This document shows positions 1-43,547 of a stretch of 64,000 bases of DNA, in pieces. A model generated the notes under the pieces. It saw only the letters and a list, made by a program, of their open reading frames with translations, did no database searches and had not been told where the DNA came from. Positions within the stretch are counted from its first letter, which is position 1. Each line of letters starts with the position of its first letter. The DNA lies in NCBI RefSeq assembly GCF_021389955.1, contig NZ_CP089980.1, positions 3,529,001 to 3,593,000 of the forward strand, read 5' to 3'. Both the position numbers and the translations under genes were made by a program. This DNA is from Fulvivirga maritima (GTDB lineage Bacteria > Bacteroidota > Bacteroidia > Cytophagales > Cyclobacteriaceae).

Positions 1-1
1 T

Positions 2-7800: not shown

Positions 7801-7963
7801 AGAATTAGTTTCGGAAATTCAAAAAGAGTTTGATTTTGAATTGCCACTAAGAGACCTCTTTACCAAGCAGGACATTCAATCTATATCTGACTATATCATT
7901 ACGGCTAAGCAAATCGATATAGATTCAGATAGTTCCGAAGAAATTATGGAACTGTCTATTTAA
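1849..7963 (+). CDS. Hybrid PKS-NRPS: KS-AT-T-C-A(Gly)-T, frameshifted in AT
   Basis: Extends the chain by a ketide unit and then an amino acid. The KS has active Cys178 in DTACSTS, plus EAHGTA and NFGHL histidines. The AT has Ser614 in GHSLGEY and the HAFH motif typical of malonyl-CoA selection. A carrier (FFEIGGDSLK) follows, then a C domain (HHIISDG), an A domain (YTSGSTGKPKG, MYGPTETTVW) and a last carrier (FFELGGNSLK). No KR, DH or ER is present, so the ketide should stay as a beta-keto unit unless something acts in trans. The A pocket reads D-I-L-Q-M-G-M-V-W-K, close to the known glycine code DILQLGLIWK. The frame breaks in the AT at the G run 4169-4173. Dropping one G gives a continuous 2037-residue protein, so I treat the two open frames (1849-4233 and 4154-7963) as one gene. 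Confidence 0.9.
4169..4173 (+). other. Frameshift site 1 (G5 run) in the AT domain
   Basis: Before this run the + frame reads ...HSVNFSRG. After it, the next frame reads GVEALLS...FLEVGPGNSL, the usual end of an AT domain. Removing one G joins them without losing a conserved residue. Sequencing error or a recent mutation explains it better than programmed shifting, because no slippery heptamer or downstream structure is evident. Confidence 0.8.
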
Positions 7964-18700: not shown

Positions 18701-18849
18701 TTACTCAGGCTGACATTCAAACAATTATCAATCAATTCAAACAATTAGTGTTCAAAATTGCGGATGATCCAGAAAAGAAGATTTTAGAATACTTAACAGA
18801 AGAAGCCCCGTCTTCTCATATAGAGGAGGAAATATCTTTTAACCTTTAA
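15720..18849 (+). CDS. NRPS: A(Ser-like code)-T-C, frameshifted near N-terminus
   Basis: Corrected length 1042 residues. The protein begins directly with an A domain; its partner C domain is on the preceding NRPS protein. Motifs: YFTSGSTGVPKG, FDAFLRDIF (A4, unusual), NLYGATETTM, YKTGD, SNGKV. A carrier (HSIGGNSLS) and a full C domain (HHIICDG) close the protein. The pocket reads D-A-R-H-L-S-L-M-I-K. The central H-L-S-L matches serine codes (DVWHLSLIDK) but the flanking positions do not, so serine is only a guess. The frame breaks at AAA 15886-15888: removing one A gives NQVIGVNLHDVSDMICAAIG, linking the 15720-15911 start to the frame that resumes at 15922. The gap to asnB is 63 bp. Confidence 0.87.
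15886..15888 (+). other. Frameshift site 5 (A3) in the third-protein A domain
   Basis: Removing one A keeps the expected A1-A2 spacing of the adenylation domain. The extra base brings a TGA stop at 15909. Confidence 0.75.
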
Positions 18850-24581: not shown

Positions 24582-27500
24582 ATGGATCAACTGCTTTTAA
24601 AGCTTAATGCACTTGGTATTGATATTAGAGTAGATAAAGGTCAGCTTAGGTTAAATGTGCCAAAAGACTTTACAGATACTAATATTTTGGAGGAAGTACG
24701 GGCTTACAAACAGGATTTGATAGCTTTTATTTCAGAACGTACTAATATTAATGCTATCAAAAATATTCCTAAAGCAAGTAATAAAGAATTTCATCAACTC
24801 TCACCGGCTCAAAGACGTATATTCATATTGCATGAGATCGATAAAAAATCTCTTGCCTACAATATGCCGCACATATTGAAGATTCATGGAAAGGTTAATG
24901 TACAGGTTTTAAATTCGATATTCAAACAACTTATAGAACGACATGAAAGTTTAAGAACGTCATTTAAAGTGCTTAATGATGAACCTGTACAAAAAATTGA
25001 GAACAGTTTTGAATTTCAGATAGAAGAGTTTGAAAATGAAAGCGAATCGGTTGTAATCAATAGATTTATCAGGCCATTTAATTTGTCAAAAGCGCCTTTA
25101 TTTAGGGTAGGCCTGTTAAGCCTGAGGGGGGATGAATACTTATTGCTAATAGATATACACCATCTAATTTTTGACGGTGTGTCATTTAGTATTCTAATTA
25201 ATGATTTCGTTGCTCTATATACTGAGGTTAGTTTACAACCAGTGAACTTGCAATATAGAGACTATTCTGAATGGCTTCAACATGACAATTTTAAGTTAGA
25301 ACTTTTAAGGCAAAAAGAATTTTGGCATTCGATTTATAAAGAAGAAGTAAGCACACTGGATTTGCCAAATGATTACTCAAGGCCATTAAATAAGTCCTTT
25401 AATGGTTCCTCCCTTTCTTTCGAGCTTGATAAGGAAAGTACTGAAAACTTAAGCCTTATAGCTGATATGCAGAATAGTACTCTCTTTGTGATAATGCTTT
25501 CTGTTTTTAAGGTACTATTGAGTAAGTTAAGTAACCAGGAAGACATTATTATAGGTACGCCCACAGCAGGGCGTATTCATGCCGATTTAGAAAGTACTAT
25601 AGGTATGTTTGTTAATACTTTGCCTTTGCGGACTAATGTGGCAGGCCATTTATCTTTTTTAGATCTGGTCTCTGAATTAAAGAGACATACATTGGCAAGT
25701 TTTGACAATCAAAGTTATCCATATGAAGAGCTTGTAGACGAGCTGAATATACCTAGAAATTCAAGCCGTAATCCATTATTTGATGTTATGTTTGTCTATC
25801 AGAATTTGGAAAATTCTTTGATAGAGCTTCCTGATTTAGAACTTTCTGCATACCATAACAACCTAAATTTCTCCAAGTTTGATTTAACTCTGTCATTGGG
25901 TGAAAATGATGGCAAGCTTTCTTTAAACTTTACTTATTCCACAGATTTATTTAAGTGTGAGACCATTGAGAGATTCATTCTGTATTTAAAAAATATTGTA
26001 AAATCAGTTATTTTAAATCCTCAGATTTCTATTTCAGAGATTGATATCCTTCCTCCTAAAGAAAAGGATAGACTTCTGAATGTTTTCAATGACAATGCAT
26101 TGGCTTATTCAAAGGACTCTTTAATACATGAAATTTTCCAAGAAGAATCATTCAATAGTCCCGAAAAGGTAGCCGTCATTTGTAATGGACAAAGCATCTC
26201 CTACAAAGAATTAAACGAGAGGTCTAATCAACTGGCTAATTATCTTTCAAAGAAGGGTATTGGCGAAGGTGAGATCATAGGTCTTCTAATGATTAAATCA
26301 ATTGATTTGGTTGTGAGTATATTAGGCGTCTTAAAAACTGGAGCTGCCTATTTACCAATGGATATTCACCATCCTGCAAATCGTAACAGGTATGTTGTAG
26401 AGTCCAGTGGGATCAAGAGTTTGATTGTAACTAAGACTACTGATGAGGTAAATGATCTTGGGGTCAACATTATAAGCGTTGAAAATGAAGAAATCACTAA
26501 TGAGAGTATAGATTATACTGCCCCATCCTTAAATGGAGATAATATGGCTTATATCCTGTATACATCAGGTTCTACTGGTATTCCAAAGGGAGTTATGATC
26601 AAGCATAGTGCTGTTCTTAATTTAATTGCTTCTCAAACAAAAGAATTTGCAATAACTAAGGAAGATAATATTTTACAGTTTTCAACGGTTATTTTCGATG
26701 CATCTGTTGAACAAACATGGTTAGCTCTTTTAAATGGAGCTACTCTAGTGCTTTTGGATAATAGAACGATTACTGATAATAAGAGCTTTAATGAGTTTTT
26801 GAAAGAGCATTCAATTACACACCTACACGCCACTCCTTCTTTTTTTAGAAACAGTAGATTTGTTAAATGGTAATAAAATAAAAAGAGTAGTTGCTGGTGG
26901 AGAGGAATGTAAAAAGTCTTTGGCTAATAAGTTTTGTGAGGAATATGATTTTTATAATAAATATGGCCCTACAGAAACTACTGTTACCGCCACCATTAAA
27001 CATGTAAAGAGAAGGGTAGAAGCGAAGGTTCCTATAGGTAAGCCAATAGGTAATATAGATGTATACATTTTAGATAAAAACAAATTGTTGCTCCCTGAAG
27101 GGGCAATAGGAGAGCTTTATATTGGTGGAGATGGAATGGCTCTGGGGTATTTAAACAATGAAAAATTAACGGAAGATACGTTTATCTCTAACCCATATAG
27201 AATAGGTTCGAAGATTTATAAAACAGGCGACCTTTGTCGATGGAATTCTGATGGAGAATTAGAGTATTTTGGTCGGATAGATCACCAGGTAAAGGTTAGA
27301 GGATATCGTATTGAGTTAGGTGAAATAGAACATCATCTAGCAGGTTATAAAGACGTAGAAGAGGTTGCCGTAGTAGCCAATGAAAGGGCTGGAGATAAGG
27401 AACTTGTGGCTTATTATGTGTCTAAAAATGAGTTGGGTAGTGCTTTAATAAAGAAGTATTTAATGAAAAGCCTTCCTGAATATATGGTGCCAACCACATA

Positions 27501-30500
27501 TATTCATTTATCACAAATGCCATTTACCTCTAGTGGTAAAATTGATAGGAAATCGCTGCCTAAGCCTATTCTTGAAGTGAGTGGTGTTAATTTGCCAGAG
27601 ACCCATCTAGAGGAGGTGCTATTAGATATTTGGGGCCAGATACTTAAATTAGACAAACAGTTTATTGATATAGACAGGAGCTTTTTTGATTTAGGAGGAC
27701 ATTCACTTCGAGCAGTACTTTTAATTAACAGAATTCATAAAGATCTATCAGTAGACCTACCACTGCGAGTTATCTTTCAGCATCAGGATATTCGTAGCCT
27801 TGCTGGTTATATAGAGGGTCAGGATCAGGTGGCGTATCTATCTATTCCGAAGGCACGAGTTCAGGATTATTATCCTTTGAGTTCTGCTCAGCGCAGGTTA
27901 TACTTTTTATATGAGTATGATAAGGCATCTGTATCCTATAATATGCCTCAGTTTGTACGCCTGCGTGGCCCCTTAGATATAGCAAGGTTGGAGGCCTCTT
28001 TTGTTAATTTGGTATCCCGTCATTCTATACTACGCACAAGCTTTCATATGAAAGGAGAGGAAGCGTTGCAGCAAGTTCACCCAGAGGTAGATTTTAAAGT
28101 ATCCTATGAAGAGGTGGAAGAGTCAGAGGTTTCATCTATTATCCAATCATTTATACGCCCATTTGATCTAAGTAGTGGCTGCTTACTTCGGGTGAAGTTA
28201 CTGATTATAGATGCTATGAATCATTTGCTACTGGTAGACATGCATCATATAGTAAGTGATGGAGTATCCAGTGGTATTTTAGTTCGGGATTTGATGACTT
28301 ATTATGAAGGTTCCTCCTTACCCCCCTTGTCATTAGATTATAAAGATTACTCTGTTTGGCAGCAGAGTTCTTCACAGTCAGCATTGAAAGATGCACACCG
28401 ATCTTATTGGCATAGTGTATATAGCGAAGAGCCATTAGTGTTAGATCTTCCCTATGACTATGCACGTCCGTCACATGCGGTTCAGGAAGGTGCAGTTTAC
28501 CGATTTAAAATAGATAAGTCTTTAACAGATAGCATATCAAGTATAGCCGCAGGTTCTAACACTACAATGTTTACAGTTTTGTTGAGCGCTTATGGCATCT
28601 TGCTGGGTCGTTTAACCAATGAGGAAGACATCATCATAGGCACACCAGTTGCAGGTCGAGAGCATTCTGATCTAGAGGGGATGATAGGGATGTTTGTGAA
28701 CACCTTAGCCTTGCGTCTTTTCCCACAGGGTATAGAAGATTTTACGAGTTACTTACATGGAGTAAGAGATCATGTTTTGTCCAGCTTTGAGCATCAGAGC
28801 TACCCCTATGAAGAGCTGGTAGATGATCTACACCTTAGTCGCAATACGAATCGTAATCCGTTGTTTGATGTGATGTTCTCCTATGGGAATTTTGAGTCTG
28901 AGTCACTGACCATGGAAGGTATAGATTTAGAGAGTTACCCTACAGGTAATACCACTACTAAGTTTGATTTGTCCTTATCATGTTCAGAAGTAGAAGGCGA
29001 ACTTTGGTTAACTTTTGAGTATTCTACAGAACTATTTAAATCGGAGACCATTGAGAGGTTCAGTAATTATTTTGAATCTATTTTAAGAGTCATTACTGCT
29101 GAGGCTAATATATCTCTTTCTGCAATAGATATTCTTTCAGACAGAGAGCGTTCGACATTATTAAGTTCTTTTAATGATACATGGAAAGTTTATGAACCCG
29201 GAACGATAATAGATTACTTCGAACGTAGTGCTTTAAGTTCAGGCTCGGCAGTAGCCGTTTATTGTGAAGGATCATGTATGAGCTATGATGAGCTTAATAC
29301 TTCGGCGAACAGATTATGTTACTATTTAACAGAGCACTGTCAGGTAGGGTCTGGAGATGTAGTGGGTCTTTACTTCGAGCGGTCAGCCTCATTGATAGTA
29401 TCCTTATTAGGGGTGTTAAAATCTGGAGCAGCTTTTACAGCTCTCTCACCGGATTATCCAAAAGAGAGGGTAAATCAGATTATAAAAGGAGCTGATATTA
29501 AGGTGGTTATTAATAATACCGGAGAAAGCTTTGTGTATGGTAAACCAGAGTTGATGGTTGTAAATCCCTTATCATCTCTAATACAAGATGTTTCTCTTTC
29601 AGATAATCCATCCGTTACCCTTTCCGGATCAGATGCTGCTTATGTTATTTATACTTCAGGAAGCACAGGAGAGCCTAAAGGGATTATTATTAGCCACTCT
29701 AATATGGTGGACTATGTGTTGACCTTTTGCTCTTATTTTGGTCTTACAAAAGAGGATAAAGTAGTTCATCAATCTTCATTATCATTTGATACATCCATAG
29801 AAGAGATTTTCCCGGCCTTAATCTCAGGTTCTTCTATCGTTATATCTCCTGTTGGAGGTAAAGATATTATATCCTTAGCCTCCCTGATAGAGTCCCGTGA
29901 AGCGACTTTGCTAAGTGCTACTCCTTTGGTGCTTGGAGAGTTGAACAACTTTAGAGAACAGCTACATACGTTAAGAACGATAATAAGTGGTGGAGAGCTG
30001 TTATTGCCTTCGCATATTGATAAGCTTATAAGGCAGCAAGAAATCTATAATACTTATGGGCCTTCAGAATCTACTGTTTGCATCACCTATAATAAAGTTG
30101 TAGATCTTTCAGATGCATCTTTAATAGGTAGTCCTATAGCTAACCGTCAGGTTTATATATTAGATAAGTACCAGCAGTTATGTCCTTTAGGGGTAGCAGG
30201 AGAGCTATGTGTTTCAGGGAAAGGATTAGCCTCGGGCTATCTGAATAATGAATCCTTAACTGATGCTAAGTTTATAGCTAACCCATTTTTAGCAGGGGAG
30301 AGGATGTACAGAACGGGAGATTTGGCTCGTTGGAATTCGGAAGGCAAGCTTGAATTTATAGGGCGAATAGATAATCAGGTTAAGATAAGTGGTTTCCGCA
30401 TAGAGTTAGGAGAGATAGAGCATTGTATAGATAATCTTTCAGAAGTTCGAGATGTATCTGTTATAGCATATGGTAAGGAAAATGCACGTAAGCTGGTGGT

Positions 30501-33500
30501 GTTTTATGTTAGTGATGAAGAGATCGCCGCTGAAATATTTAGGGATCACCTATCCTCTAAGTTACCGGTTTACATGGTTCCCCACCACTACATTCACCTG
30601 GATCATATGCCTTTAACTGTTAATGGCAAGTTAGATAAACGCTCTTTACCAGCGCCAGAACTTACCAGCGGAGCTTACACTGCCCCTGTCAGTTCTATGG
30701 AGCATGACCTTGTTCAGATATGGTCAGAGGTGTTAAAGCAGCCATCAGAGTCAATAAGCGTTACCCGCAGCTTTTTTGAGTTGGGAGGCCACTCATTAAA
30801 GGCAGCATTTTTGGTGAACAGGATTCATAAAGATCTATCAGTAGACCTACCACTGCGAGTTATCTTTCAGCATCAGGATATTCGTAGCCTTGCTGGTTAT
30901 ATAGAGCGTCAGGATCAGGTGAGGTATCTATCTATTCCGAAGGCACCAGTTCAGGATTATTATCCTTTGAGTTCTGCTCAGCGCAGGTTATACTTTTTAT
31001 ATGAGTATGATAAGACATCTGTATCCTATAATATGCCTCAGGTTGTACGCCTGCGTGGCCCCTTAGATATAGCAAGGTTGGAGGCCTCTTTTGTTAATTT
31101 GGTATCCCGTCATTCTATACTACGCACAAGCTTTCATATGAAAGGAGAGGAAGCGTTGCAGCAAGTTCACCCAGAGGTAGGTTTTAAAGTATCTTATGGA
31201 GAGGTGGAAGAGTCAGAGGTTTCATCTATTATCCAATCATTTATACGTCCATTTGATCTAAGTAGTGGCTGCTTACTTCGGGTGAAGTTACTGATTATAG
31301 ATGCTATGAATCATTTGCTACTGGTAGACATGCATCATATAGTAAGTGATGGAGTATCCAGTGGTATTTTAGTTCGGGATTTGATGACTTATTATGAAGG
31401 TTCCTCCTTACCCCCCTTGTCATTAGATTATAAAGATTACTCTGTTTGGCAGCAGAGTTCTTCACAGTCAGCATTGAAAGATGCACACCGATCTTATTGG
31501 CATAGTGTATATAGCGAAGAGCCATTAGTGTTAGATCTTCCCTATGACTATGCACGTCCGTCACATGCGGTTCAGGAAGGTGCAGTTTACCACTTTAAAA
31601 TAGATAAGTCTTTAACAGATAGCATATCAAGTATAGCCGCAGGTTCTAACACTACAATGTTTACAGTTTTGTTGAGCGCTTATGGCATATTGCTGGGTCG
31701 TTTAACCAATGAGGAAGACATCATCATAGGCACACCAGTTGCAGGTCGAGAGCATTCTGATCTAGAGGGGATGATAGGGATGTTTGTGAACACCTTAGCC
31801 TTGCGTCTTTTCCCACAGGGTATAGAAGATTTTACGAGTTACTTACATGGAGTAAGAGATCATGTTTTGTCCAGCTTTGAGCATCAGAGCTACCCCTATG
31901 AAGAGCTGGTAGATGATCTACACCTTAGTCGCAATACGAATCGTAATCCGTTGTTTGATGTGATGTTCTCCTATGGGAATTTTGAGTCTGAGTCACTGAC
32001 CATGGAAGGTATAGATTTAGAGAGTTACCCTACAGGTAATACCACTACTAAGTTTGATTTGTCCTTATCATGTTCAGAAGTAGAAGGCGAACTTTGGTTA
32101 TCGTTTAGTTATTCCTCAGAGCTGTTCAAAGAAGAGAGTATCAAGCGTTTTGCAGACTATTACTGTTCTATCTTGGAACAGATAGGACGAGATTCATCAA
32201 TATCTGTTGGAGCTATAGACATATTATCAGATCAGGAGAAGCAAGAGCTTTTGGTGGATTTTAATGATACCGCTCATGACTACCCATTAGAAAAAACTAT
32301 TATTCAAGTTTTTAACGAGAAGGTAGAGGAATTTTCAGATCATGTGGCATTGGTATTTGAAGGAAAAAAGATGACTTATGCCTTACTTAAGCAAAAGGTA
32401 GATAGTGTAGCATCATATATATCGAAAGTAGGTATAGGTAAGAATGAGCTTGTGGGGGTATTAATGGATAAGTCATTTGATATGATAGTGGCAGTAATGG
32501 GAGTGCTTGAATCAGGGGCAGCTTTTCTCCCCATTGATCCAGGAAATCCTAGTGATCGTATTGATTATATGTTACGTGACAGTGGTTGTAGATTGTTGAT
32601 TGTTCAAAGTCATTTGCAAGATAGGTTTAGTGTAGATTTAGAGGTTTTGAAAATATCAGAAATAGATTCTAACTCTACCTGCTTTAAAAATCATAGCTCT
32701 CCAGAAGATTTAGCTTATCTGATTTATACATCAGGTACATCAGGAAAACCTAAAGGAGTGGCAGTAAAACATAAATCTTTAACAAATTTATGCTTTTGGC
32801 ATAATGAAACATTTAACATCTCAGAGCTAGACAGGGCAACCAAATATGCGAGCTTTAGTTTTGATGCTTCTGTTTGGGAAATATTCCCTTATTTAATTAA
32901 AGGTGCTTCAATACATATTATAAATAATTCATTAAAATTAGATGTTAAGAAGCTAAATGAGTATTATAATCGTAATGGAATTAGTATAAGCTTTTTGCCT
33001 ACTCAGGTTTGTGAGGAATTTATGAAGGAAGATAATTCTTCCCTTCGAATATTATTAACAGGTGGGGATAATCTTCGAAAAATGGCTAATAACCGCTATC
33101 AGATCTTTAATAATTATGGTCCTACTGAAAATACAGTTGTCAGTACAAGTGGGCAGTTAGAGTATGGTGGACATATTTCAATAGGCAGGCCAATTGCTAA
33201 TAGTCAAGTATATATTATAGATAGAAACGGTAATCTGGTACCTAAAGGAGTTAAAGGTGAGTTGTATGTTGGGGGAGCTAATCTTTCAGAAGGTTATTGG
33301 AATAAACTTGAGCTTACTAAATCAAAATTTATAAAAATAGAATGGTGTGAAAATGGCAAAGTTTATAAAACTGGAGATTTAGCGAGATGGTTGCCAGATG
33401 GACTATTAGAGTTTAAAGGAAGAGTCGATCATCAGGTTAAGATCAGAGGTTTCAGAATTGAATTGAGTGAAATTGAGAGTGTTTGTTTGGAGTATGATGA

Positions 33501-36500
33501 GGTTCGGGAGGTTGTAGTTGTAGTATACGAACAAGGAGGAGATAAACATCTTATACTATACTATACAGGGTTTCAGGATGTTGGTGATAATATCAAAAAT
33601 TACCTATCCTCTAAATTACCGGTTTACATGGTTCCCCACCACTACATTCACCTGGATCATATGCCTTTAACTGTTAATGGCAAGTTAGATAAACGCTCTT
33701 TACCAGCGCCAGAACTTACCAGCGGAGCTTACACTGCCCCTGTCAGTTCTATGGAGCATGACCTTGTTCAGATATGGTCAGAGGTGTTAAAGCAGCCATC
33801 AGAGTCAATAAGCGTTACCCGCAGCTTTTTTGAGTTGGGAGGCCACTCATTAAAGGCAGCATTTTTGGTGAACAGGATTCATAAAGATCTATCAGTAGAC
33901 CTACCACTGCGAGTTATCTTTCAGCATCAGGATATTCGTAGCCTTGCTGGTTATATAGAGCGTCAGGATCAGGTGAGGTATCTATCTATTCCGAAGGCAC
34001 CAGTTCAGGATTATTATCCTTTGAGTTCTGCTCAGCGCAGGTTATACTTTTTATATGAGTATGATAAGACATCTGTATCCTATAATATGCCTCAGGTTGT
34101 ACGCCTGCGTGGCCCCTTAGATATAGCAAGGTTGGAGGCCTCTTTTGTTAATTTGGTATCCCGTCATTCTATACTACGCACAAGCTTTCATATGAAAGGA
34201 GAGGAAGCGTTGCAGCAAGTTCACCCAGAGGTAGGTTTTAAAGTATCTTATGGAGAGGTGGAAGAGTCAGAGGTTTCATCTATTATCCAATCATTTATAC
34301 GTCCATTTGATCTAAGTAGTGGCTGCTTACTTCGGGTGAAGTTACTGATTATAGATGCTATGAATCATTTGCTACTGGTAGACATGCATCATATAGTAAG
34401 TGATGGAGTATCCAGTGGTATTTTAGTTCGGGATTTGATGACTTATTATGAAGGTTCCTCCTTACCCCCCTTGTCATTAGATTATAAAGATTACTCTGTT
34501 TGGCAGCAGAGTTCTTCACAGTCAGCATTGAAAGATGCACACCGATCTTATTGGCATAGTGTATATAGCGAAGAGCCATTAGTGTTAGATCTTCCCTATG
34601 ACTATGCACGTCCGTCACATGCGGTTCAGGAAGGTGCAGTTTACCACTTTAAAATAGATAAGTCTTTAACAGATAGCATATCAAGTATAGCCGCAGGTTC
34701 TAACACTACAATGTTTACAGTTTTGTTGAGCGCTTATGGCATATTGCTGGGTCGTTTAACCAATGAGGAAGACATCATCATAGGCACACCAGTTGCAGGT
34801 CGAGAGCATTCTGATCTAGAGGGGATGATAGGGATGTTTGTGAACACCTTAGCCTTGCGTCTTTTCCCACAGGGTATAGAAGATTTTACGAGTTACTTAC
34901 ATGGAGTAAGAGATCATGTTTTGTCCAGCTTTGAGCATCAGAGCTACCCCTATGAAGAGCTGGTAGATGATCTACACCTTAGTCGCAATACGAATCGTAA
35001 TCCGTTGTTTGATGTGATGTTCTCCTATGGGAATTTTGAGTCTGAGTCACTGACCATGGAAGGTATAGATTTAGAGAGTTACCCTACAGGTAATACCACT
35101 ACTAAGTTTGATTTGTCCTTATCATGTTCAGAAGTAGAAGGCGAACTTTGGTTATCGTTTAGTTATTCCTCAGAGCTGTTCAAAGAAGAGAGTATCAAGC
35201 GTTTTGCAGACTATTACTGTTCTATCTTGGAACAGATAGGACGAGATTCATCAATATCTGTTGGAGCTATAGACATATTATCAGATCAGGAGAAGCAAGA
35301 GCTTTTGGTGGATTTTAATGATACCGCTCATGCTTATGATCAGGAAGTCACGTTAATTGATCAATTTAGAAAACAGGTATCTAAGACTCCTCATGCAGTA
35401 GCTATGATCTACCATGATGATGAAATGGATTATCTCACCTTAGATGTGTATTCAGATCGATTGGCGTCTTTTCTTCAAAGTATTGGAGTTTCTCAAGGCG
35501 ATAAAGTAGGTCTGATGTTATCACGATCTTTCCAGATGATTATAGGTTTACTTGGGATCATGAAAGCTGGAGCAGCTTACGTGCCTATGGATATTGAACA
35601 GCCCACAAGTCGTAAGTTACATATTATAAAAGAATGTGATATTGAAGTTTTAATAACGGATGCAGGTGATGAAGTGAGCCTGCCGAATGTTAAATTAGTA
35701 AGGGTTAGTGATGGGCTAAATGTATCGGTGGGTACAAAGCGAGAGCTAAGAGGAGATCATACCGCTTATGTTATTTACACGTCAGGGTCAACAGGTCATC
35801 CAAAAGGAGTAATGATTACTCATAGAAGTGTTATTAATTATATAAGCTGTCAGCAAGAAAACTATCATCTCACAGCCGGAGAGCGAATACTTCAGTTCTC
35901 TTCAATAATATTTGATGCTTCGGTGGAGCAAATTTGGTTGTCATTACTCTCAGGTTCATCTCTGGTTTTACTGGATAAAGATCTGTTGCTTGACAGAGAT
36001 TCATTATGGAGCTATGTTAAAGCAAAAAGTGTTACTCATTTTCATTCTACACCTATTTTTCTTGAGGGGATACCTGTAGATGGGTGTAGCAGTCTTAAAC
36101 GCGTAGTGTCAGGAGGTGAAGAGTGTAAGCCAAGTTTAGTGAATAAGTTTATACCGTATTGTGATTTTTACAATAAATATGGTCCTACGGAAACTACTAT
36201 AAGCTCATTATTGCATTATATTGGTAAGGATACTCCTCAAAAAGGATCCATACCAATAGGTTCTCCTGTGTGGAATACCCAACTCTATGTATTGGGTAAA
36301 CATGGAGGCTTGCAGCCTAAAGGAAGTACCGGTGAGTTATATATAGGTGGTGCAGGTTTGTCTGGAGGGTATTTGAATAAATCATCTCTAACATCAGAGA
36401 AGTTTGTACAAAATCCTTATGAGTCAGGAGATATAATATATAAGACAGGAGATTTGGTACGCTGGCTTCCCGGTGGGCAGATGGAATTTAAGGGACGTAG

Positions 36501-37935
36501 TGATGATCAGATAAAGATTAGAGGTTTCCGTGTGGAGCCCGGAGAGATAGAAAATCATCTAAGGATCTATGCAGATATTACTCAGGTAGTGGTATTAGCT
36601 CTAGGTGATGGATCTGATCGTCATTTGGTTGCTTACTATGTTAGTAAGACTGAGCATTCATCAGATGATCTTCGCCAATATTTATCAGAGTATTTTCCAG
36701 AGTATATGGTTCCGTTATATTATGTATATCTGGAACATATGCCTCTAACGATTAATGGCAAGTTAGATAAACGCTCTTTACCATCGCCAGAACTTACCAG
36801 CGGAGCTTACACTGCCCCTGCCAGTTCTATGGAGCATGACCTTGTTCAGATATGGTCAGAGGTATTAAAACAGCCATCAGAGTCAATAAGCGTAACGCGC
36901 AGCTTTTTTGAGTTGGGAGGCCACTCATTGAAGGCAGCATTTTTGGTGAACAGGATCCATGATCAGCTAAATGTAGAAGTATCGCTTTATGATGTGTTTG
37001 ATAAGCCCACTATACGTGGATTGAGTAAAAGACTTGAGCAAATTAGTAAACCATCCTCTGCTTTTGATAATTCCGTTATTTCGCTAAAAACTAATGATCA
37101 ATCTGATTTGAATTTATTTTTCATTCATGATGGTGGTGGAGATGTGAGCGGCTATCTGAAATTGACGGAGCAAATAAGTGGTTGCAATTGCTGGGGCTTA
37201 AAAAGTGACACACTTAATAGCATAGGCCCTTCAGATACATGTATAGAAGAAATTGCAGATCGTTTTATGGAGAAAATTCTTATGATCCAAGACAAAGGTC
37301 CTTACTATCTGCTGGGATGGAGTTTTGGCGGCACATTGGCAGTAGAGATAGCCAGAAGAATAGAGCAGAAAGGCCTGGAAGTGGCTTTAGTTACAATTAT
37401 TGATAGTTATTTGCCTGTGACTAATGATGGCACGTATGTGAAGTTTGATTTAAATGAGGAGATTAAGTTTTTAAAGGAATTTGTTGACGTCAAATTATCG
37501 AATAAGAAAGAAACTTCCTTGGAGGATTTATGGGTAAATGCTTTAATGACAATAGAGAATAGATCGGAATACCTATTAAAAGTCAAAAATCAATTGGATA
37601 ATGGTCTTAAAAATTTAATGCCACATTGGGAAGAGTCTAATTTAGAGGAGTTAGTTAGAGGAATAAATACCATCAGAACCTTAAGAGAGATAAAAATTAA
37701 ATATTTGCCAGACTATAGAATTAAGGCTCAATGTGTTTATATTAAGGCTAATAAGTCTGAAGCCAACATTGATAATGTACAGGCATTCTTCAATAAGAAT
37801 TTATTAGTTCATGAGATTGAAGGTGACCATTTTAATATAATGAGGAAACCAAAAGTTTCTATGGTTTATGAGATTATAGAAAATCATTTAAAATCTCTTA
37901 GAGACATCTTTATTGATGAACTAATCTCTGAATGA
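24582..37935 (+). CDS. Giant terminal NRPS: docking-C-A-T-C-A-T-C-A-T-C-A-T-TE (frameshifted)
   Basis: About 4450 residues after one T is dropped from the run 26840-26846. Residues 1-52 resemble a TubC docking domain. Four C-A-T modules follow and a type I thioesterase ends the line (GWSFGG, active Ser near residue 4247; late His in EGDHFNIM), so this protein releases the peptide. C motifs are HHLIFDG and then three copies of HHIVSDG. Pocket codes by eye: D-A-E-H-V-G-K-V-T-K (unassigned); D-T-E-S-I-G-T-V-C-K (near the bacitracin Lys code DAESIGSVCK); D-A-W-S-L-G-N-V-V-K (near Leu DAWFLGNVVK); D-A-E-H-V-G-K-I-S-K (same type as the first). No epimerisation domain is seen. The last three C domains are near-identical DNA copies. 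TE-domain hydrolysis versus cyclisation cannot be told. Confidence 0.92.
26840..26846 (+). other. Frameshift site 6 (T7 run) in the giant NRPS
   Basis: With six T the frame reads ATPSFLETVDLLNGNKIKRVV, cut here for length at its key part ATPSFLETV, and continues into the frame that resumes at 26860. With seven T it stops at 26873, inside the A domain between motifs A4 and A5. Confidence 0.88.
27733..29010 (+). repeat. C-domain repeat, copy 1 (about 1.28 kb)
   Basis: Nearly identical in DNA to 30823-32100 (offset 3090) and 33877-35154 (offset 6144). It covers the end of a carrier domain and most of the following C domain. Identity stops sharply after ACTTTGGTTA at 29010. Scattered single-base differences are few, e.g. 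27961-27962 and 28090s. Confidence 0.93.
30548..32278 (+). repeat. A-end/T/C repeat, copy 2 (about 1.73 kb)
   Basis: Almost identical to 33602-35332 at an offset of 3054. It holds the last part of an A domain, the carrier and the entire C domain, and ends at GATACCGCTCATG just where the next A domain begins. The A cores between the copies are quite different. Confidence 0.93.
33602..35332 (+). repeat. A-end/T/C repeat, copy 3 (about 1.73 kb)
   Basis: Third copy of the C-domain repeat, and partner of the long repeat at 30548-32278. It differs from that copy by very few bases (for example one in the first 20). This points to recent duplication or ongoing gene conversion. Confidence 0.93.
36752..36956 (+). 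repeat. Carrier-domain repeat, extra copy
   Basis: About 205 bp, nearly identical to 30620-30824 and 33674-33878. It encodes the A10 motif and the carrier up to FFELGGHSLKAAFLVNRI. Here it leads to the thioesterase linker instead of a C domain. Confidence 0.88.
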
Positions 37936-37979: not shown

Positions 37980-40900
37980 ATGCGAATTTTAATTTTAAAT
38001 TATTGTCAAATGGGATGGAGGAAGTTCTATTGCCTATTAATTATTTACTTATTAGCTACGTCTGAGAGTTCATTTTCTCAAAATAAGAAGGAAGTGGATT
38101 CAGCGGTGATGGACAGGAAGGTTGTAGATTTAATGGATAAAGGGGGCATACCAGGGCTTAGCATTGTACTCGTTAACGGTGATGAGACTCTGGTTAAAGC
38201 TTATGGGTATTCAAATCTAAAAGAGATGGATACTGTGAATACTAGTACATTATTTCAATTAGCCTCATGTAGTAAAGCATTTACTGCGGTAGCAATAGCT
38301 AAACTTATATCAGAGAACCAAATTGAGTTAAGTGACAAGGTGTCAAAATATTTACCTTGGTTTAAAGTTGAATATAAAAATAAGGCTCAGAATATAGAGA
38401 TTAAACATTTATTACACCATACAAGTGGAATACCCTGGAATACAATTTCAGATATACCTACAGCTAATGATAAGTTTGCCTTAGAGAAAACAATAAGAAA
38501 GTTAATAGGTGAAAAGTTGAACTCAGAACCAGGTACTAAGTATGAATATGCAACTATTAATTATGACGTATTGGCATTAATTATTGAGAAAGTCACTGAA
38601 ATTCCATTTGAAACTTATTTGCAAACCAATATCATTAATCCTATAGGCATGTGTAGTACATCAGTGGGGGAGGCATCTCAAAAAAGGATGATGGCAAGTG
38701 GGTACAAAATAGGCTTTTTTAGTCCTCGTGAATTTAAGGCGCCAATTTATAAGGGCAATAATGCTGCAGGGTATGTGATTTCCAATGCTGATGATATGTT
38801 GAAATGGGTAGAAGTACAGCTAGGTAGAGGCGATTCTGCCATAGTTCAACTAGTAAAACAAACTCATGCAAGGGATAGAACAGTACCCTTGCATGGAATG
38901 TCTGCCTATGCCATGGGCTGGCATGTTAGGCTAAATGGTAGCGGTGAGATTTATCATGAAGGTCTAAACCCTAATTTTACATCTTACATAGTGATCAATC
39001 CAGATTTAGGGGGTGGGGTAGCAGTGATGGCAAATTCTAACAGTTCGTATACCGCTGTAATTGGTGAATATCTGATGAGTGCAATTACTGGTAAAGAGTT
39101 TATAGAGGATTCAGATCTCGGAGACGGTAATGATAAGGTATATTCTTATATCACGATGGCCCTTGTCTTATATACTTTAATTGTAATTAGTTTTCTGTTG
39201 TTTACCGCTTGGGCCATCGCAAAGAAATTCAGAAAATATAAGGAGTTAAATAGGAAACGAATTGGCTCTATGATGTTTTCAGTCTTATTGATTACACCAT
39301 TTGTGTATGCTATCTACCTATTTCCTGAAGCATTAGCTCAGTTTTCTTGGGAAGCAATACTTGTGTGGTCACCTGTGAGTCTAGAGGTGCTAATTATAGC
39401 TTTGAGTATTTCCGTTACGTTGAGTTATTTCTCCTATTTTGTAACATCCATCTTTCCTAGTGAAAATGAGTTTTTGGGTAAAGCACCGATGATCATACTT
39501 TTTAGTGTTCTTTCTGGCTTATCAAATGTTTTACTCATTATAATGATCACTTCAGCCATAGGCAGTGATATTGAACTAAAATATCTTATAGCTTACTATA
39601 TACTCATATTGAGTGTATATCTTTTAGGACGAAGATTTGTCCAAACTAACTTAATAAGATTTGCACGTGGCTTGGTTTATGATTTAAGAATCGAGCTAAT
39701 TGATAAAATATTTTCTACCTCATATGAGAAGTTCGAATATCTTGATCGTGGAAGAGTATATACTGCATTAAATGATGATGTAAATAATATTGGTGGTTCC
39801 ACTAACATGTTTGCCTCACTGATTACTAATACAATTACGGCTTTAGGTGCATTTGTGTATCTGGCCTCTATAGCATTCTGGGCTACCATACTAACCTTAT
39901 TCTTAATAGTAACACTCACAGTCATTTATTTCTTAGTGGGTAGAAGTACTAATGTCTATTATGAAAATGCCCGTGATGAGCGTAACGTTTTTATGCGTTT
40001 GGTTAATGGGATGATTGACGGGTTTAAGGAAATAAGTTTGCATCAGTTTAAAAAACTGTCTTATAAAGATGATGTAGCTCAAAGTGCTAAATTCTATAAA
40101 GAAAAAATATCTACAGCTGACATAAGGTTTGTTAATGCATTCTTGGTTGGGGAATCTTTATTGGTGGTTTTATTAGGGATAGTTGCCTTTGGGATGCCCA
40201 AATTATTTACAAACATTGAGCTTCATGTGCTTATGAGTTTTGTGGTTATATTATTGTATTTAATAGGTCCAATTAATACAATATTGGGAGCTATACCTAC
40301 AATGATGCAGTTAAAAGTTGCATGGAATAGACTCAAACAATTCAAAAAAGATATTCCGGCTAATCTTAAATTAGAAATTATGCCAATCTCTTTTCCTAAG
40401 ACCGATTCTTTTGAGGTTAGAGGAGTTAGTTATAGTTATAAAAATCAGAATGGAGATAATAGTTTTGAGGTGGGACCTATAAATCTAAGGGCAGAGGCCG
40501 GAGAGATAATTTTTGTAATAGGAGGTAATGGCAGTGGTAAAACAACATTTGCTAAATTGATTACAGGATTATATACACCTGATAAAGGTAATATCTTGAT
40601 TAATGGACATAATATTGATATAGCATGTGCAGGTGAGTTCTTTTCGACCATATTTAGTCCTGCTCATTTGTTCAAAAAAATCTACAGTAAAAAGCAATTC
40701 CAACAAGATGATCATAATCATTTATTGGAATTACTTCAACTCGCTCATAAAGTCCAGATTGATAATAATTCTTATAGTACCATTAAATTATCTGCAGGGC
40801 AACTAAAAAGACTAGCTATGTTTCAATGCTATTTGGAGGATTCGCCTATCTACCTTTTTGATGAGTGGGCGGCAGACCAGGATCCAGAGTTTAGACAATT

Positions 40901-41057
40901 CTACTATAGAGCATTATTGCCAGAGATGAAAAAAATGGGGAAAATCGTCATTGCCATTACTCACGATGATAATTATTTTGACGTAGCTGATCGTCTTTAT
41001 AAAATGGATCAGGGTAAGCTTAAATTATATCATAAAGAAGATACTATGGTCTTCTGA
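37980..41057 (+). CDS. Serine peptidase-membrane-ABC exporter fusion (ClbP/ZmaM-like)
   Basis: A 1025-residue fusion. A signal segment (about residues 12-33) leads to a periplasmic beta-lactamase-fold peptidase with Ser96-Cys-Ser-Lys99, Tyr190-Ala-Thr and a late HEG motif. About three membrane helices follow (near residues 388-500), then an ABC exporter membrane domain with several helices, and a nucleotide-binding domain with Walker A GGNGSGKTT (from residue 848), signature LSAGQ and Walker B IYLFDEW. The exporter part is of the PvdE/SyrD cyclic-peptide type. Ser/Lys/Tyr positions mirror those of the colibactin peptidase ClbP (S95, K98, Y186), and peptidase-ABC fusion is known for ZmaM of zwittermicin. 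The likely job is export of the NRPS product with periplasmic removal of an N-terminal prodrug residue, or cleavage for self-protection. Start could also be Met11. Confidence 0.85.
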   Translation: MRILILNYCQMGWRKFYCLLIIYLLATSESSFSQNKKEVDSAVMDRKVVDLMDKGGIPGLSIVLVNGDETLVKAYGYSNLKEMDTVNTSTLFQLASCSKAFTAVAIAKLISENQIELSDKVSKYLPWFKVEYKNKAQNIEIKHLLHHTSGIPWNTISDIPTANDKFALEKTIRKLIGEKLNSEPGTKYEYATINYDVLALIIEKVTEIPFETYLQTNIINPIGMCSTSVGEASQKRMMASGYKIGFFSPREFKAPIYKGNNAAGYVISNADDMLKWVEVQLGRGDSAIVQLVKQTHARDRTVPLHGMSAYAMGWHVRLNGSGEIYHEGLNPNFTSYIVINPDLGGGVAVMANSNSSYTAVIGEYLMSAITGKEFIEDSDLGDGNDKVYSYITMALVLYTLIVISFLLFTAWAIAKKFRKYKELNRKRIGSMMFSVLLITPFVYAIYLFPEALAQFSWEAILVWSPVSLEVLIIALSISVTLSYFSYFVTSIFPSENEFLGKAPMIILFSVLSGLSNVLLIIMITSAIGSDIELKYLIAYYILILSVYLLGRRFVQTNLIRFARGLVYDLRIELIDKIFSTSYEKFEYLDRGRVYTALNDDVNNIGGSTNMFASLITNTITALGAFVYLASIAFWATILTLFLIVTLTVIYFLVGRSTNVYYENARDERNVFMRLVNGMIDGFKEISLHQFKKLSYKDDVAQSAKFYKEKISTADIRFVNAFLVGESLLVVLLGIVAFGMPKLFTNIELHVLMSFVVILLYLIGPINTILGAIPTMMQLKVAWNRLKQFKKDIPANLKLEIMPISFPKTDSFEVRGVSYSYKNQNGDNSFEVGPINLRAEAGEIIFVIGGNGSGKTTFAKLITGLYTPDKGNILINGHNIDIACAGEFFSTIFSPAHLFKKIYSKKQFQQDDHNHLLELLQLAHKVQIDNNSYSTIKLSAGQLKRLAMFQCYLEDSPIYLFDEWAADQDPEFRQFYYRALLPEMKKMGKIVIAITHDDNYFDVADRLYKMDQGKLKLYHKEDTMVF

Positions 41058-41094: not shown

Positions 41095-42042
41095 ATGAAA
41101 GAAACCACCTCCAAAATCGGACTACCTAAATCTTTTCAATTGCACGATTTGAAACCAGATGAGTTTATAACTTATTATTTCGAAAAAGAAAAGGAAATAG
41201 AGGATGAACTGCTTTTATCTGGTGCCGTGAAATTTCATGGTGTGCAAATTGAGTCTATTGATGTGTTTCAAAATATTGTTAACTCTATAGCAACCAAATT
41301 TTTGTCATATATTGATGGTAACTCCCCCAGAACCAAACTTACTGGTAATGTTTACACCTCAACAGAATACGATAAAACACAGAGAATCACCATGCATAAT
41401 GAGCTGTCTTATTCTGCTAAATGGCCAGGTAAGTTATTTTTCAGTTGCATTCAGCCAGCAGAATCAGGCGGAGAAACATTACTCGCAGATAGCCGTGAAA
41501 TTTTATCCTTGATGGATAATGATCTGGTTAAGGAAGTTGAGAGTAAGGGAGTAATGTATATTAGAAATTTACATGGAGGCAAAGGTATGGGGCCTTCTTG
41601 GCAAGATACTTTTGAGACAGAGAGTAAAGATCAATTAGAGGAATACTGTAAACAGTATAACATAGAATATGAATGGAAAGAAGATAATGGCTTGAGGTTA
41701 AGGCAGAAAAGTAAAGGCATTGTAGGACACAGAACCAGTGGCGAGAAAGTGTGGTTTAACCAGATAGATCAATTTCATCCATATCAGCTTGGAGAAGATC
41801 TTTATGAGGCTATGAAAGCGATATTTCCAACTCCTGAAGATTTCCCATCTTATGTAACCTTTGGGAATGGAGATGTCATTTCCGAAGAATTAGTGTCCGA
41901 AATTTTAAGAGTGACGCAGAAAGCAACCATAGCACCCGCTTGGAATAAGAATGAATTGCTTATTGTGGATAACGAACTGGCAAGTCATGGGCGAAACTCA
42001 TATACAGGCAATCGAACGGTTTTAGTTTCAATGTGTGAGTAA
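41095..42042 (+). CDS. TauD/SyrP-like Fe(II)/2-oxoglutarate hydroxylase
   Basis: A 315-residue TauD-family oxygenase. Iron ligands are His101 and Glu103 in MHNELSY and distal His298 in ASHGRNSYTGNR; the Arg after it binds 2-oxoglutarate. The HNE form with a following SY is typical of the SyrP group, which hydroxylates carrier-bound Asp at the beta carbon in syringomycin-type pathways. The start ATG lies 37 bp after the exporter gene, and the racemase starts just after the stop codon. Together with the Asp/Asn-coded module, the JmjC oxygenase, AsnB and the racemase, it suggests a beta-hydroxylated Asp/Asn in the product. Whether it or the JmjC protein does this step cannot be told. Confidence 0.85.
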   Translation: MKETTSKIGLPKSFQLHDLKPDEFITYYFEKEKEIEDELLLSGAVKFHGVQIESIDVFQNIVNSIATKFLSYIDGNSPRTKLTGNVYTSTEYDKTQRITMHNELSYSAKWPGKLFFSCIQPAESGGETLLADSREILSLMDNDLVKEVESKGVMYIRNLHGGKGMGPSWQDTFETESKDQLEEYCKQYNIEYEWKEDNGLRLRQKSKGIVGHRTSGEKVWFNQIDQFHPYQLGEDLYEAMKAIFPTPEDFPSYVTFGNGDVISEELVSEILRVTQKATIAPAWNKNELLIVDNELASHGRNSYTGNRTVLVSMCE

Positions 42043-42043
42043 T

Positions 42044-42832
42044 ATGATAAAAAAAACTATTGGAGTAGTAGGAGGTATGGGGCCTATGGCCGGGGTTGCA
42101 TTGGTAGAAAAGATTACACGTAACACCCCTGCACACAAAGATCAAGAACATTTTTCTGTAATTTTAGTTTCTAACCCAATGATAATTGACAGAACTCAAT
42201 TTCTAGAAGGGGAAGTCGATGAAAATCCTGCATATCAGATTTCGGAATCCATTGCGCAGTTGGCAAAGTGCGGGGCAGATGTAGTAGGTATAGCTTGCAA
42301 CACTTCTTATTCTTCGGCTATATATGATGTTTTATGTGAAGAATTAAAACGAAGAGATATTAAAGTTAATGTTTTGGATCTTCCTGGCGAAACATATGAA
42401 GAGCTTAGAAAGCATGGTGAAAATGTTAGGAAGGTTGGTATAATGGCCACAAATGGCACATATAAGTCCAGGGTTTATGAATCCATACTTACTTCTAATG
42501 GTTATGAAGTTGTCTTGCCAGATGTTAACTTTCAAGAAACTATTATACATCAGATCATTTATAATAGCGATTACGGCATTAAATCTCATCCCGAATGGGT
42601 TTCCGATGAAGCTAGAAAGAAATTTATTCAAGCATTAAACTTTTTTAAAATTAAAGGAGCTGATGCAATTATTTTGGCTTGTTCAGAACTTTCATTTCCT
42701 TTTAAAGAAATTTATCCAACAGATTTACTAATAATTGATCCAATGGAATGTATGGCTCGGGCTTTAATTAGAGAAGCTTCAGGAAAAAATGCTGAAAAGG
42801 AATCGCTAGAGCCGTCAATGGAAACAACTTAA
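42044..42832 (+). CDS. Aspartate/glutamate racemase family protein
   Basis: About 262 residues with the two catalytic cysteines of the cofactor-independent Asp/Glu racemases: Cys85 in GIACNTSY and Cys213 in LACSELSF, plus the N-terminal GGMGPMAG. I chose ATG 42044, one base after the upstream stop, over GTG 42035, which would overlap that gene by 8 bp. Both imply translational coupling with the hydroxylase. It would supply D-Asp (or D-Glu) as a free amino acid, which matters because no epimerisation domain is visible in the synthetases. Downstream the type II thioesterase begins 7 bp after the stop. Confidence 0.85.
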   Translation: MIKKTIGVVGGMGPMAGVALVEKITRNTPAHKDQEHFSVILVSNPMIIDRTQFLEGEVDENPAYQISESIAQLAKCGADVVGIACNTSYSSAIYDVLCEELKRRDIKVNVLDLPGETYEELRKHGENVRKVGIMATNGTYKSRVYESILTSNGYEVVLPDVNFQETIIHQIIYNSDYGIKSHPEWVSDEARKKFIQALNFFKIKGADAIILACSELSFPFKEIYPTDLLIIDPMECMARALIREASGKNAEKESLEPSMETT

Positions 42833-42839
42833 ATCATAA

Positions 42840-43547
42840 ATGGATAAAATTAAATTGTTCTGTTTTCCTTATGCTGGAGGCTCTGCATCCATATTTTATG
42901 AATGGAAAAGTTACTTATCTCCTCATATAGAAATTATTGCCATAGAGCTAAAAGGTAGGGGAAGACGTATAAAAGAAGACCTGTATGATAATGTAGATGA
43001 GTTGATTGATGACATTTTTTCTATCATTAAAAAGCATCTTCATAATTGTAACTACGCCTTTTTTGGGCATAGCATGGGAGCCATGATAGCCTATGAGCTC
43101 ACTTTAAGAATAAAAAGAGAAAAGTTGCATCTTCCTGTTCATTTATTTGTTTCAGGTAGAGGAGCACCTCATATTTATAAACCCAAAAACTATCATTTAT
43201 TAGATGATAAAAATTTTGAGAAGGAAATCCTCAAGCTTGGGGGTACTCCGCCGGAGTTTTTTGATTATCCTGAGCTTTTAGAGATATTTTTACCTCTACT
43301 TAAAAATGATTTTAAACTTTCTGACACCAAAAATCGGGATGATATTATTCCAATTGAAACAGGTCTTACAGCTTTTTTTGGTAATGATGAGGATTTGACT
43401 TTAGAGCAAATAGAGGAGTGGCGAAATTATACAAGTAGGATTTATGAAAAAAACATTTATCCTGGAGGACATTTTTTTATTAAGAAATACTATAAAAAAG
43501 TCATTAAAGTTATTAATAGTCGCCTTTCTGAAACTCTTTATAAATAA
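42840..43547 (+). CDS. Type II thioesterase
   Basis: A 235-residue alpha/beta hydrolase of the external thioesterase family. FCFPYAGGSA at the start and GHSMGA with Ser78 are diagnostic; GGHFFI near the end holds the catalytic His. These enzymes clear misprimed or stalled groups from carrier domains. It is the last gene of the biosynthetic operon: after it comes an AT-rich gap with an 18-bp palindrome and then IS-disrupted genes. Confidence 0.92.
   Translation: MDKIKLFCFPYAGGSASIFYEWKSYLSPHIEIIAIELKGRGRRIKEDLYDNVDELIDDIFSIIKKHLHNCNYAFFGHSMGAMIAYELTLRIKREKLHLPVHLFVSGRGAPHIYKPKNYHLLDDKNFEKEILKLGGTPPEFFDYPELLEIFLPLLKNDFKLSDTKNRDDIIPIETGLTAFFGNDEDLTLEQIEEWRNYTSRIYEKNIYPGGHFFIKKYYKKVIKVINSRLSETLYK

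What the first reader, a model, noticed from the sequence alone, without database searches (positions are those of the whole stretch)
37980..41057. Peptidase-3TM-ABC exporter fusion as a prodrug-activating exporter
One protein joins a beta-lactamase-fold peptidase (S96-K99-Y190), a few membrane helices and an ABC exporter with intact Walker A, LSAGQ and Walker B. ClbP (S95, K98, Y186) and the ABC-fused ZmaM are established prodrug peptidases for colibactin and zwittermicin. In this operon it suggests that the peptide leaves the cell as an inactive precursor and is trimmed during export. This is uncommon in Bacteroidota NRPS clusters as far as I know.
Basis: partly seen in the sequence, partly recalled or inferred. 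Interest (0 to 1): 0.72.

Follow-up and report, generated by a model that had tools for sequence, protein, structure and literature searches.

The report
Prodrug-trimming peptide exporter in Fulvivirga
A bacterium of the Fulvivirga group appears to build a peptide with a fatty, removable cap and to carry one fused protein that both pumps the capped peptide out and cuts the cap off, the self-protection trick known from the antibiotic zwittermicin, here in a different branch of bacteria.

Summary
In detail: 37980-41057 (+) is one 1025-aa protein joining an S12 peptidase, a ClbP-like three-helix domain and a complete cyclic-peptide ABC exporter. About 56 kb upstream, same strand, the cluster starts with FAAL-ACP-C-A-T-E; its A domain reads DLTKIGEVG (Asn) and it has the only E motif found in the cluster. 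The peptidase has the ClbP D-Asn pocket; five other S12 proteins of the genome do not match it as a set. In a sample of 148 family genomes the full fusion occurs in three and the stand-alone starter in the same three. All 25 strong starters found in 23 named Bacteroidota genomes with the fusion read Asn (the query was itself an Asn module) and carry a FAAL (the query held none). Most likely a ZmaM-type prodrug-activating exporter. New: the FAAL-loaded starter, the phylum, and Q93 at ClbP E92. Against: Flp outscores ClbP over the bare peptidase domain; four of 27 fusion genomes gave no strong starter; at least five genes of this cluster are interrupted in this strain. No chemistry was tested.

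The parts
37980..41057 (+). Peptidase-3TM-ABC exporter fusion, 1025 aa (ZmaM-type)
37980..38081 (+). N-terminal hydrophobic segment, read by eye as signal sequence (residues 1-34); no predictor run
   Evidence: translation
38112..39047 (+). S12 peptidase domain, residues 45-356; catalytic S96, K99, Y190; pocket T192, N260, N330; Q93 at the ClbP E92 position
39132..39464 (+). Three-helix membrane domain, about residues 385-495 (limits by eye), aligning with the ClbP membrane domain; W457 and W463 = ClbP W460 and W466
39492..41021 (+). ABC exporter half, TIGR01194 match residues 505-1014 (membrane part 505-763, ATPase 833-964)
1..1810 (+). End of an NRPS gene (A-T) of the same cluster
1849..7963 (+). 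PKS-NRPS stretch (KS-AT read by eye, then T-C-A-T), frame change near 4.2 kb
8000..12587 (+). NRPS stretch C-A(code DLTKLGHIG)-T-C, frame change near 9.7 kb
12618..13728 (+). Cupin_8-like gene (Pfam match below cut-off), frame change near 13.4 kb
13796..15656 (+). Asparagine synthase-like gene, frame change near 15.0 kb
15922..18849 (+). NRPS gene A-T-C; the first part of the A domain is missing from the frame
18893..20359 (+). Second S12 hydrolase of the operon; G at the S188 position
20421..21980 (+). FAD/NAD(P)-dependent oxidoreductase
22027..24573 (+). NRPS gene C(partial)-A-T
24582..37935 (+). NRPS stretch C-A-T-C-A-T-C-A-T-C-A-T-TE, frame change inside the first A domain near 26.85 kb
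41095..42042 (+). TauD-type dioxygenase
42035..42832 (+). Asp/Glu-type amino acid racemase
42840..43547 (+). Stand-alone thioesterase

Best explanation
It is a ZmaM-type, N-acyl-D-asparagine-specific prodrug-activating exporter. Gene 1 of the cluster (G000:C1:3504587-3511045, 24.4 to 18.0 kb before window base 1) activates a fatty acid with its FAAL, puts it on an ACP, joins it to Asn and epimerises the Asn, so that the assembly line grows on an acyl-D-Asn cap. The finished capped product is taken out by the ABC half, which probably works as a homodimer. On the outer side of the membrane the fused S12 domain, with the acyl chain held at the TM2-TM3 linker, cuts after D-Asn and frees the amino terminus of the active product. 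Shown here: the fusion, its catalytic and pocket residues, the starter architecture and A code, and their co-occurrence. Inferred from ClbP/ZmaM biochemistry: substrate, side of the membrane, cleavage, that the cap keeps the product inactive, and any coupling of export and cleavage.
For: (1) Starter FAAL-T-C-A-T-E with A code DLTKIGEVG; its front matches solved FAALs such as 3pbk and FadD32. (2) It carries the only E motif (HHxxxDxxSW, with NYLGQ) found in the cluster, and one dual C/E motif rule found none. (3) Pocket: N330 = N331, T192 = S188, N260 = H257, W457/W463 = W460/W466; the roles of these residues are from PMC9889268 (passages). Five other S12 proteins of this genome do not match as a set. 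(4) 148 family genomes: full fusion in 3; a match over 650 bits in a frame of about 2150 aa in the same 3; chance 1.9e-6 if genomes were independent, which they are not. (5) 25 of 25 strong starters in 23 named fusion genomes, plus G072 and the own one, read DLTK[IV]GE[VI]G; all 26 fetched have a FAAL in front, one seen only in part (contig end) and one in a split frame. The query was an Asn module, so the Asn part is biased; it held no FAAL, so the FAAL part is not. (6) All 13 Bacillota loci that show an E module have an Asn-coded A-T-E near the fusion. (7) Starter and fusion share a contig in 16 of 27 cases, 15 on the same strand, 3.8-87 kb apart. (8) 51 of 63 fusions but 0 of 16 unfused relatives have an NRPS A motif in the fetched flank.
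Against: Flp (4gdn), which lacks the pocket, scores above ClbP. Of 27 fusion-bearing named genomes searched, 3 (bins) had no match at 1e-100 and Puia dinghuensis only a weak one with another code. Six Bacillota loci (L078, L086, L090, L091, L100, L104) and two bins (L063, L066) show other codes and no Asn code in the fetched flank; L061 and L099 gave no code. In 11 of 27 cases starter and fusion lie on different contigs of drafts. ClbP E92 is Q93 here and K235 is M238. Asn-coded modules also occur in genomes without the fusion (2 of 7 readable best hits). The meaning of the A code is recalled, not computed. In this strain at least five genes of the cluster are interrupted, so the pathway may not run here.
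Confidence: 0.87

Rival explanations
1. Right parts, dead pathway: fusion and starter are intact, but the cluster of this strain is decaying (or mis-assembled), so no prodrug is made here and the fusion has no substrate of its own. This can be true together with the best explanation, which is about what the parts are for.
For: Frame changes inside five genes or synthetase stretches, four of which are single frames in the matching Fulvivirga marina genes at 53-85% identity, the fifth inside an A domain where the two clusters differ more (38-40%); a sixth gene is short at its start. Background: 5 of 71 frames holding a TonB Plug domain are under 650 aa, by my estimate one per 40 kb or less, against 5-6 in about 68 kb. 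Three transposase/integrase ORFs lie just downstream.
Against: Three of the six places hold a homopolymer run of 6 or more, against 7.5% of 400 random 50-base windows, which fits plain read errors as well. The fusion, gene 1, and the genes at 18.9-22 kb and 41.1-43.5 kb are whole.
Confidence: 0.3
2. D-stereospecific resistance peptidase (BogQ/TriF type): the fused S12 domain destroys the finished peptide at an internal D-residue to protect the producer.
For: BogQ and TriF have the same catalytic motifs, come from NRPS producers and cut after D-residues (PMC8127968, passages). A racemase gene at 42035-42832 could supply a free D-amino acid.
Against: The only E motif found in the cluster is in the starter and no dual C/E motif was found; the pocket is the D-Asn pocket; the fusion co-occurs with the starter.
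Confidence: 0.05
3. Flp/PBP-like or esterase-like S12 enzyme fused to an exporter, with no prodrug role.
For: Best solved match of the peptidase domain is S. aureus Flp, 195 bits.
Against: Flp has N, D and L where ClbP and this protein have S/T, H/N and N. The window protein aligns with ClbP on through the three helices; the solved Flp chain (342 aa) holds no such part, so Flp cannot be compared there. Co-occurrence with the Asn starter.
Confidence: 0.03

Closest known systems
ZmaM (zwittermicin), with EdeA (edeine) and PamJ (paenilamicin): ABC-fused ClbP-like peptidases
   Same: Same order and similar size (about 1,100 aa in PMC9889268, passages; 1025 here): S12 peptidase, membrane helices, ABC half of the cyclic-peptide exporter type; beside an NRPS with a C-A(Asn)-T-E starter.
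   Different: Bacteroidota; the starter has a FAAL-ACP in front (26 of 26 fetched, against 0 of 13 Bacillota loci in the fetched flank). ZmaM's own sequence was not found in the plasmid collection and was not compared directly.
ClbP (colibactin)
   Same: Catalytic residues, D-Asn pocket, TM2-TM3 linker tryptophans, three-helix domain.
   Different: ClbP has no ABC half; ClbP E92 and K235 are Q93 and M238 here; the product is unrelated.
Staphylococcus aureus Flp (4gdn)
   Same: Highest score over the peptidase domain (195 bits).
   Different: N, D and L at the three pocket positions, not T, N, N.
Cyclic peptide export ABC transporters (TIGR01194)
   Same: ABC half over the family cut-off.
   Different: Most relatives in the family sample match only from about residue 460-535 on, in frames of about 530-640 aa, without a peptidase.
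BogQ/TriF D-stereospecific resistance peptidases
   Same: S12 motifs, D-specific, NRPS producers (PMC8127968, passages).
   Different: They destroy the finished drug at internal D-residues; here the only E motif found is in the starter. Their sequences were not compared.

Membership tests
N-acyl-D-Asn prodrug-activating peptidase (ClbP family) | SxxK and Y catalytic residues | tested here: met
   S96, K99, Y190
N-acyl-D-Asn prodrug-activating peptidase (ClbP family) | N331, strictly conserved in prodrug peptidases | tested here: met
   N330. Two of five other S12 proteins of this genome also align an N there, so it is not sufficient alone
N-acyl-D-Asn prodrug-activating peptidase (ClbP family) | S or T at 188 (N in the wider S12 family), H or N at 257 | tested here: met
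   T192 and N260. One of the two scan patterns selects T at 188 in the relatives
N-acyl-D-Asn prodrug-activating peptidase (ClbP family) | W460 and W466 in the TM2-TM3 linker | tested here: met
   W457 and W463
N-acyl-D-Asn prodrug-activating peptidase (ClbP family) | E92, highly conserved, which orients N331 (salt bridge with K235 in ClbP) | tested here: not met
   Q93 and M238. The source calls E92 highly conserved, not strictly; E92Q of ClbP kept wild-type-like D-Asn activity and gained D-Asp activity (PMC9889268, passages), so this does not speak against D-Asn cleavage
N-acyl-D-Asn prodrug-activating peptidase (ClbP family) | Starter module that makes acyl-D-Asn (C-A(Asn)-T-E) | tested here: met
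   Gene 1; the meaning of the A code is recalled
N-acyl-D-Asn prodrug-activating peptidase (ClbP family) | Cleavage of an acyl-D-Asn amide | not testable with these tools
   needs an enzyme assay
ZmaM-type ABC-fused subgroup | ABC half-transporter fused C-terminally | tested here: met
TIGR01194 cyclic peptide exporter | score over the curated cut-off | tested here: met
   345 bits, cut-off 286
D-stereospecific resistance peptidase (BogQ/TriF) | internal D-residue in the product to cut | tested here: inconclusive
   no E motif outside the starter was found; a free D-amino acid from the racemase is not excluded

The most novel reading that the evidence does not exclude
Bacteroidota hold their own class of removable-cap NRPS clusters: a FAAL fused to the starter loads the acyl-D-Asn cap, and the ZmaM-type fusion takes it off. 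Just under a third of these peptidases (9 of 32 Bacteroidota relatives plus the window; 0 of the 48 others) carry Q at the ClbP E92 position, the change that lets ClbP also cut D-Asp caps, so part of this branch may be naturally relaxed for D-Asn and D-Asp. The cap may double as the export address read by the fused exporter.
Probability: 0.5. Interest if true: 0.62.

Novelty: new variant of a known kind. Interest (0 to 1): 0.5.

Why it matters
In the known systems the cap keeps a harmful product inactive inside its maker, so each fusion plus Asn starter points to a likely bioactive peptide. The published survey of these peptidases names Firmicutes, Proteobacteria and Actinobacteria (PMC9889268, passages). 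Here 23 named Bacteroidota genomes, in addition to the own genome and G072, hold both the fusion and a FAAL-Asn starter (one of the 23, G560, is the same as G142 of the family sample). The boronic-acid ClbP inhibitors that also inhibit ZmaM (PMC9889270, passages) offer a direct way to make capped precursors pile up in cultured species such as Fulvivirga, Pedobacter and Chitinophaga.

Tried and rejected
Idea that Q93 goes with an Asp-loading starter: rejected. The starter found in the genome reads Asn for the window and for seven of the nine Q-bearing relatives (L034/G538, L040/G544, L045/G549, L048/G552, L058/G558, L059/G559, L060/G560), as for E-bearing ones. In four of these eight (window, G538, G549, G559) starter and fusion share a contig; in the rest the pairing is by genome only. 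L050/G553 had no starter match; L062 lies in a genome with several fusions and starters and cannot be paired.

Idea that an Asn-T-E module alone marks the system: rejected. G013 and G090 have Asn-coded modules (that of G013 is internal; that of G090 is cut by a contig end) but no full fusion. Their best S12 proteins (110 and 144 bits) have N at the 188 position and I or L at the 331 position.

Led nowhere: plasmid search, 11 records, all matching the exporter half only; PADLOC, one weak ATPase match; Rfam, no match in 36000-46000. Structure prediction could not be run, so no fold comparison was made. My first motif rule labelled some C domains as E; the strict rule replaces it, and E labels for window ORFs should be ignored. 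A codes were read only where the motif rule caught the A domain; several A domains of the cluster have none.
Full report
WHAT IS THERE. The ORF 37980-41057 (+) encodes 1025 aa: hydrophobic N-terminus, S12 peptidase (45-356), three-helix stretch (about 385-495), ABC membrane part (505-763, under the Pfam cut-off) and ATPase (833-964). NCBIfam puts the exporter in TIGR01194, cyclic peptide export, over its cut-off. The own genome has no second full-length copy. The window is G000:C1:3529001-3593000 of a one-contig 6.39-Mb genome. G142, placed in the same genus group, shares an identical stretch of at least 11 kb with L060, Fulvivirga sediminis, so the host is taken to be in the genus that holds that species; its species is not known.

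PEPTIDASE. phmmer of residues 35-384 against the PDB: Flp 195 bits, ClbP 158, next 105. With the helices included, ClbP rises to 179 bits and the alignment runs on through the TM2-TM3 linker; Flp stays at 194. Mapping: S95=S96, K98=K99, Y186=Y190, S188=T192, H257=N260, N331=N330, W460=W457, W466=W463, K240=K243, F243=F246, but E92=Q93 and K235=M238. The weight of these positions is taken from PMC9889268 (passages seen, not the whole text): N331 is strictly conserved in prodrug peptidases, 188 is S/T, 257 is H/N, W460 and W466 are the conserved TM residues, and E92Q of ClbP keeps D-Asn activity and gains D-Asp. Flp has N, D, L at 188, 257, 331. Of five other S12 proteins of the own genome aligned (the second S12 of the operon, L002, L003, L004, L006), none has T/S at 188, and none matches the set; two align an N at 331.

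STARTER. The operon begins before the window. Gene 1 (G000:C1:3504587-3511045) is FAAL-ACP-C-A-T-E, 2152 aa; the front part matches solved FAALs. Its A code is DLTKIGEVG; that this means Asn is recalled knowledge. The same code stands in an A-T-E module of all 13 Bacillota loci that show an E module; two of these (L088, L093) have a second E module with another code. Gene 1 carries the only strict E motif found from gene 1 to 44 kb of the window, and one dual C/E rule found none. Between it and the window lie an FtsX/MacB-like permease (named by eye), a 4571-aa NRPS-PKS and the start of the next NRPS; the other synthetase and tailoring genes run to 43547.

CO-OCCURRENCE. Family sample of 148 genomes: full fusion in G000, G072, G142; a match to the gene-1 A-T-E query over 650 bits in a frame of 2125-2170 aa in the same three. 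The other 145 have neither; 8 of them have weaker NRPS matches at 1e-120, the best 569 bits, 2 of the 7 readable ones Asn-coded. Scan of genome contigs: 242 pattern matches, 137 relatives, the best 80 kept; 63 are fusions with a Walker A, 1 is cut by a contig end, 16 are unfused proteins of 489-513 aa. A motif in the fetched flank (up to 10 kb, often less): 51 of 63 fusions, 0 of 16 unfused. Pocket in the 80: N331 N in 80, 188 T in 79 and S in 1 (partly selected by the scan pattern), 257 N in 79 and D in 1, W460 in 77, W466 in 77. I gave 32 of the 80 loci to the starter search; 30 were held, in 27 genomes. 24 of 27 have a match at 1e-100, 23 at 669 bits or more; G536, G553 and G557 (bins) have none and G554 (Puia dinghuensis) has 495 bits. 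These 23 genomes are all Bacteroidota by title and hold 25 strong matches in frames of 2084-2177 aa (one split, one cut by a contig end) and two more in larger frames; all 27 read DLTK[IV]GE[VI]G. The query was itself Asn-coded, so this is biased towards Asn. The 26 starters fetched (25 plus G072) all match the own FAAL at 46-65% identity, one over part only; the query did not include the FAAL. Of the 13 Bacillota loci, 12 were tested and all 13: none has a FAAL match like this (7 have 22-25% matches, the level of ordinary A domains; only the fetched flank was searched). Of 27 starters (25 named, G072, own) 16 share a contig with a fusion: 11 upstream of it on the same strand by 31-87 kb, 4 downstream on the same strand by 3.8-4.6 kb, 1 on the other strand 30 bases away; 11 lie on other contigs of drafts. 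A phylum sample of 395 genomes has the peptidase at 1e-50 only in the own genome, so the system is rare but scattered.

TREE. In a quick tree of 84 peptidases the 32 Bacteroidota need two changes of label and Bacillota one; the root is not known, so no direction of transfer is claimed. The window's nearest is Fulvivirga marina (54% over 442 columns), then G072. The 16 unfused Bacilli form one starred clade. ClbP and Flp are long branches and their place is unsure.

Q AT E92. Q occurs in 9 of 32 Bacteroidota relatives and in the window, and in 0 of the 48 others. It does not go with an Asp starter (see rejected ideas).

STATE OF THIS CLUSTER. Fulvivirga marina (G535:C55, about 12.8-82.9 kb) has the same order from the ParB-like gene through gene 1, the permease, the NRPS/PKS genes, cupin, asparagine synthase, A-T-C, second S12, oxidoreductase, large NRPS, fusion, dioxygenase, racemase and thioesterase, in frames that I saw as whole; the large NRPS before the fusion differs in modules (38-40% identity). 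In the window strain frame changes fall inside the PKS gene, the C-A-T-C gene, the cupin gene, the asparagine synthase-like gene and the first A domain of the last NRPS stretch, and the A-T-C gene is short at its start. Three of six places contain a homopolymer of 6 or more. Whether this is decay or read error is open; as background, 5 of 71 TonB Plug frames are under 650 aa.

A RELATED LOSS. G036, of the same genus group, has near similar neighbours (YebC-like and ParB-like genes, by eye) another PKS/NRPS cluster with a 644-aa protein that matches from residue 383 on, so with the helices but no peptidase; by eye the first linker tryptophan is kept and the second is R. G036's best A-T-E module does not read Asn. 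This fits a peptidase that is kept only where there is an acyl-D-Asn cap, but it is one case.

LITERATURE. In the papers listed (open-licence library, capped lists) I saw none that describes this mechanism in Bacteroidota. PMC9248904 (passages) describes chitinopeptin clusters with an S8 peptidase. PMC12565237 (passages) reports large NRPS/PKS clusters and antibacterial extracts in F. kasyanovii and has no occurrence of 'prodrug'. Subscription journals are mostly missing, so this absence is weak.

VERDICT. A ZmaM-type prodrug-activating exporter in a Bacteroidota NRPS-PKS cluster: a known kind, with a FAAL-loaded starter and, in part of the branch, a changed residue behind the pocket. Export, cleavage and product are not shown.

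Noticed in passing
window 4160-4235, 9715-9760, 13415-13445, 15015-15045, 15840-15900, 26830-26875: Genes of the cluster interrupted by frame changes (the fifth place: a gene short at its start), while matching Fulvivirga marina genes are whole.
   Followed up: partly
L014 / G036:C1:2496399-2498330: A helices-plus-ABC exporter without the peptidase domain in a same-genus genome; its best A-T-E module is not Asn-coded.
   Followed up: partly
L084, L087, L094-L098, L101-L103, L105-L110: Sixteen unfused 489-513 aa ClbP-like proteins in Bacilli have N at the N331 position but no NRPS A motif in the fetched flank; one clade in the tree. They may cut caps made elsewhere, or have another substrate.
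   Followed up: no
L052 (Puia dinghuensis): Fusion with D at the H257 position; neighbouring synthetase codes seen are not Asn and no strong FAAL-Asn starter was found.
   Followed up: partly
L055, L061, L063, L064, L066-L069, L073, L074, L085, L099: Fusions in bins named Aminicenantes, Acidobacteriota and Delongbacteria; F, not W, at the W466 position in L061, L063 and L069.
   Followed up: no
window 18893-20359: Second S12 hydrolase of the operon, kept in Fulvivirga marina (70% identity), with G at the 188 position; role unknown.
   Followed up: partly
window 26860-37935: Long near-identical C-domain stretches repeated three times in one synthetase, as from recent module duplication (seen by eye; same motif three times).
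   Followed up: no
window 43983-47784 (-): Three transposase/integrase ORFs of different families just after the cluster.
   Followed up: no
G535 (Fulvivirga marina): One genome with four different fusions and three FAAL-Asn starters.
   Followed up: no
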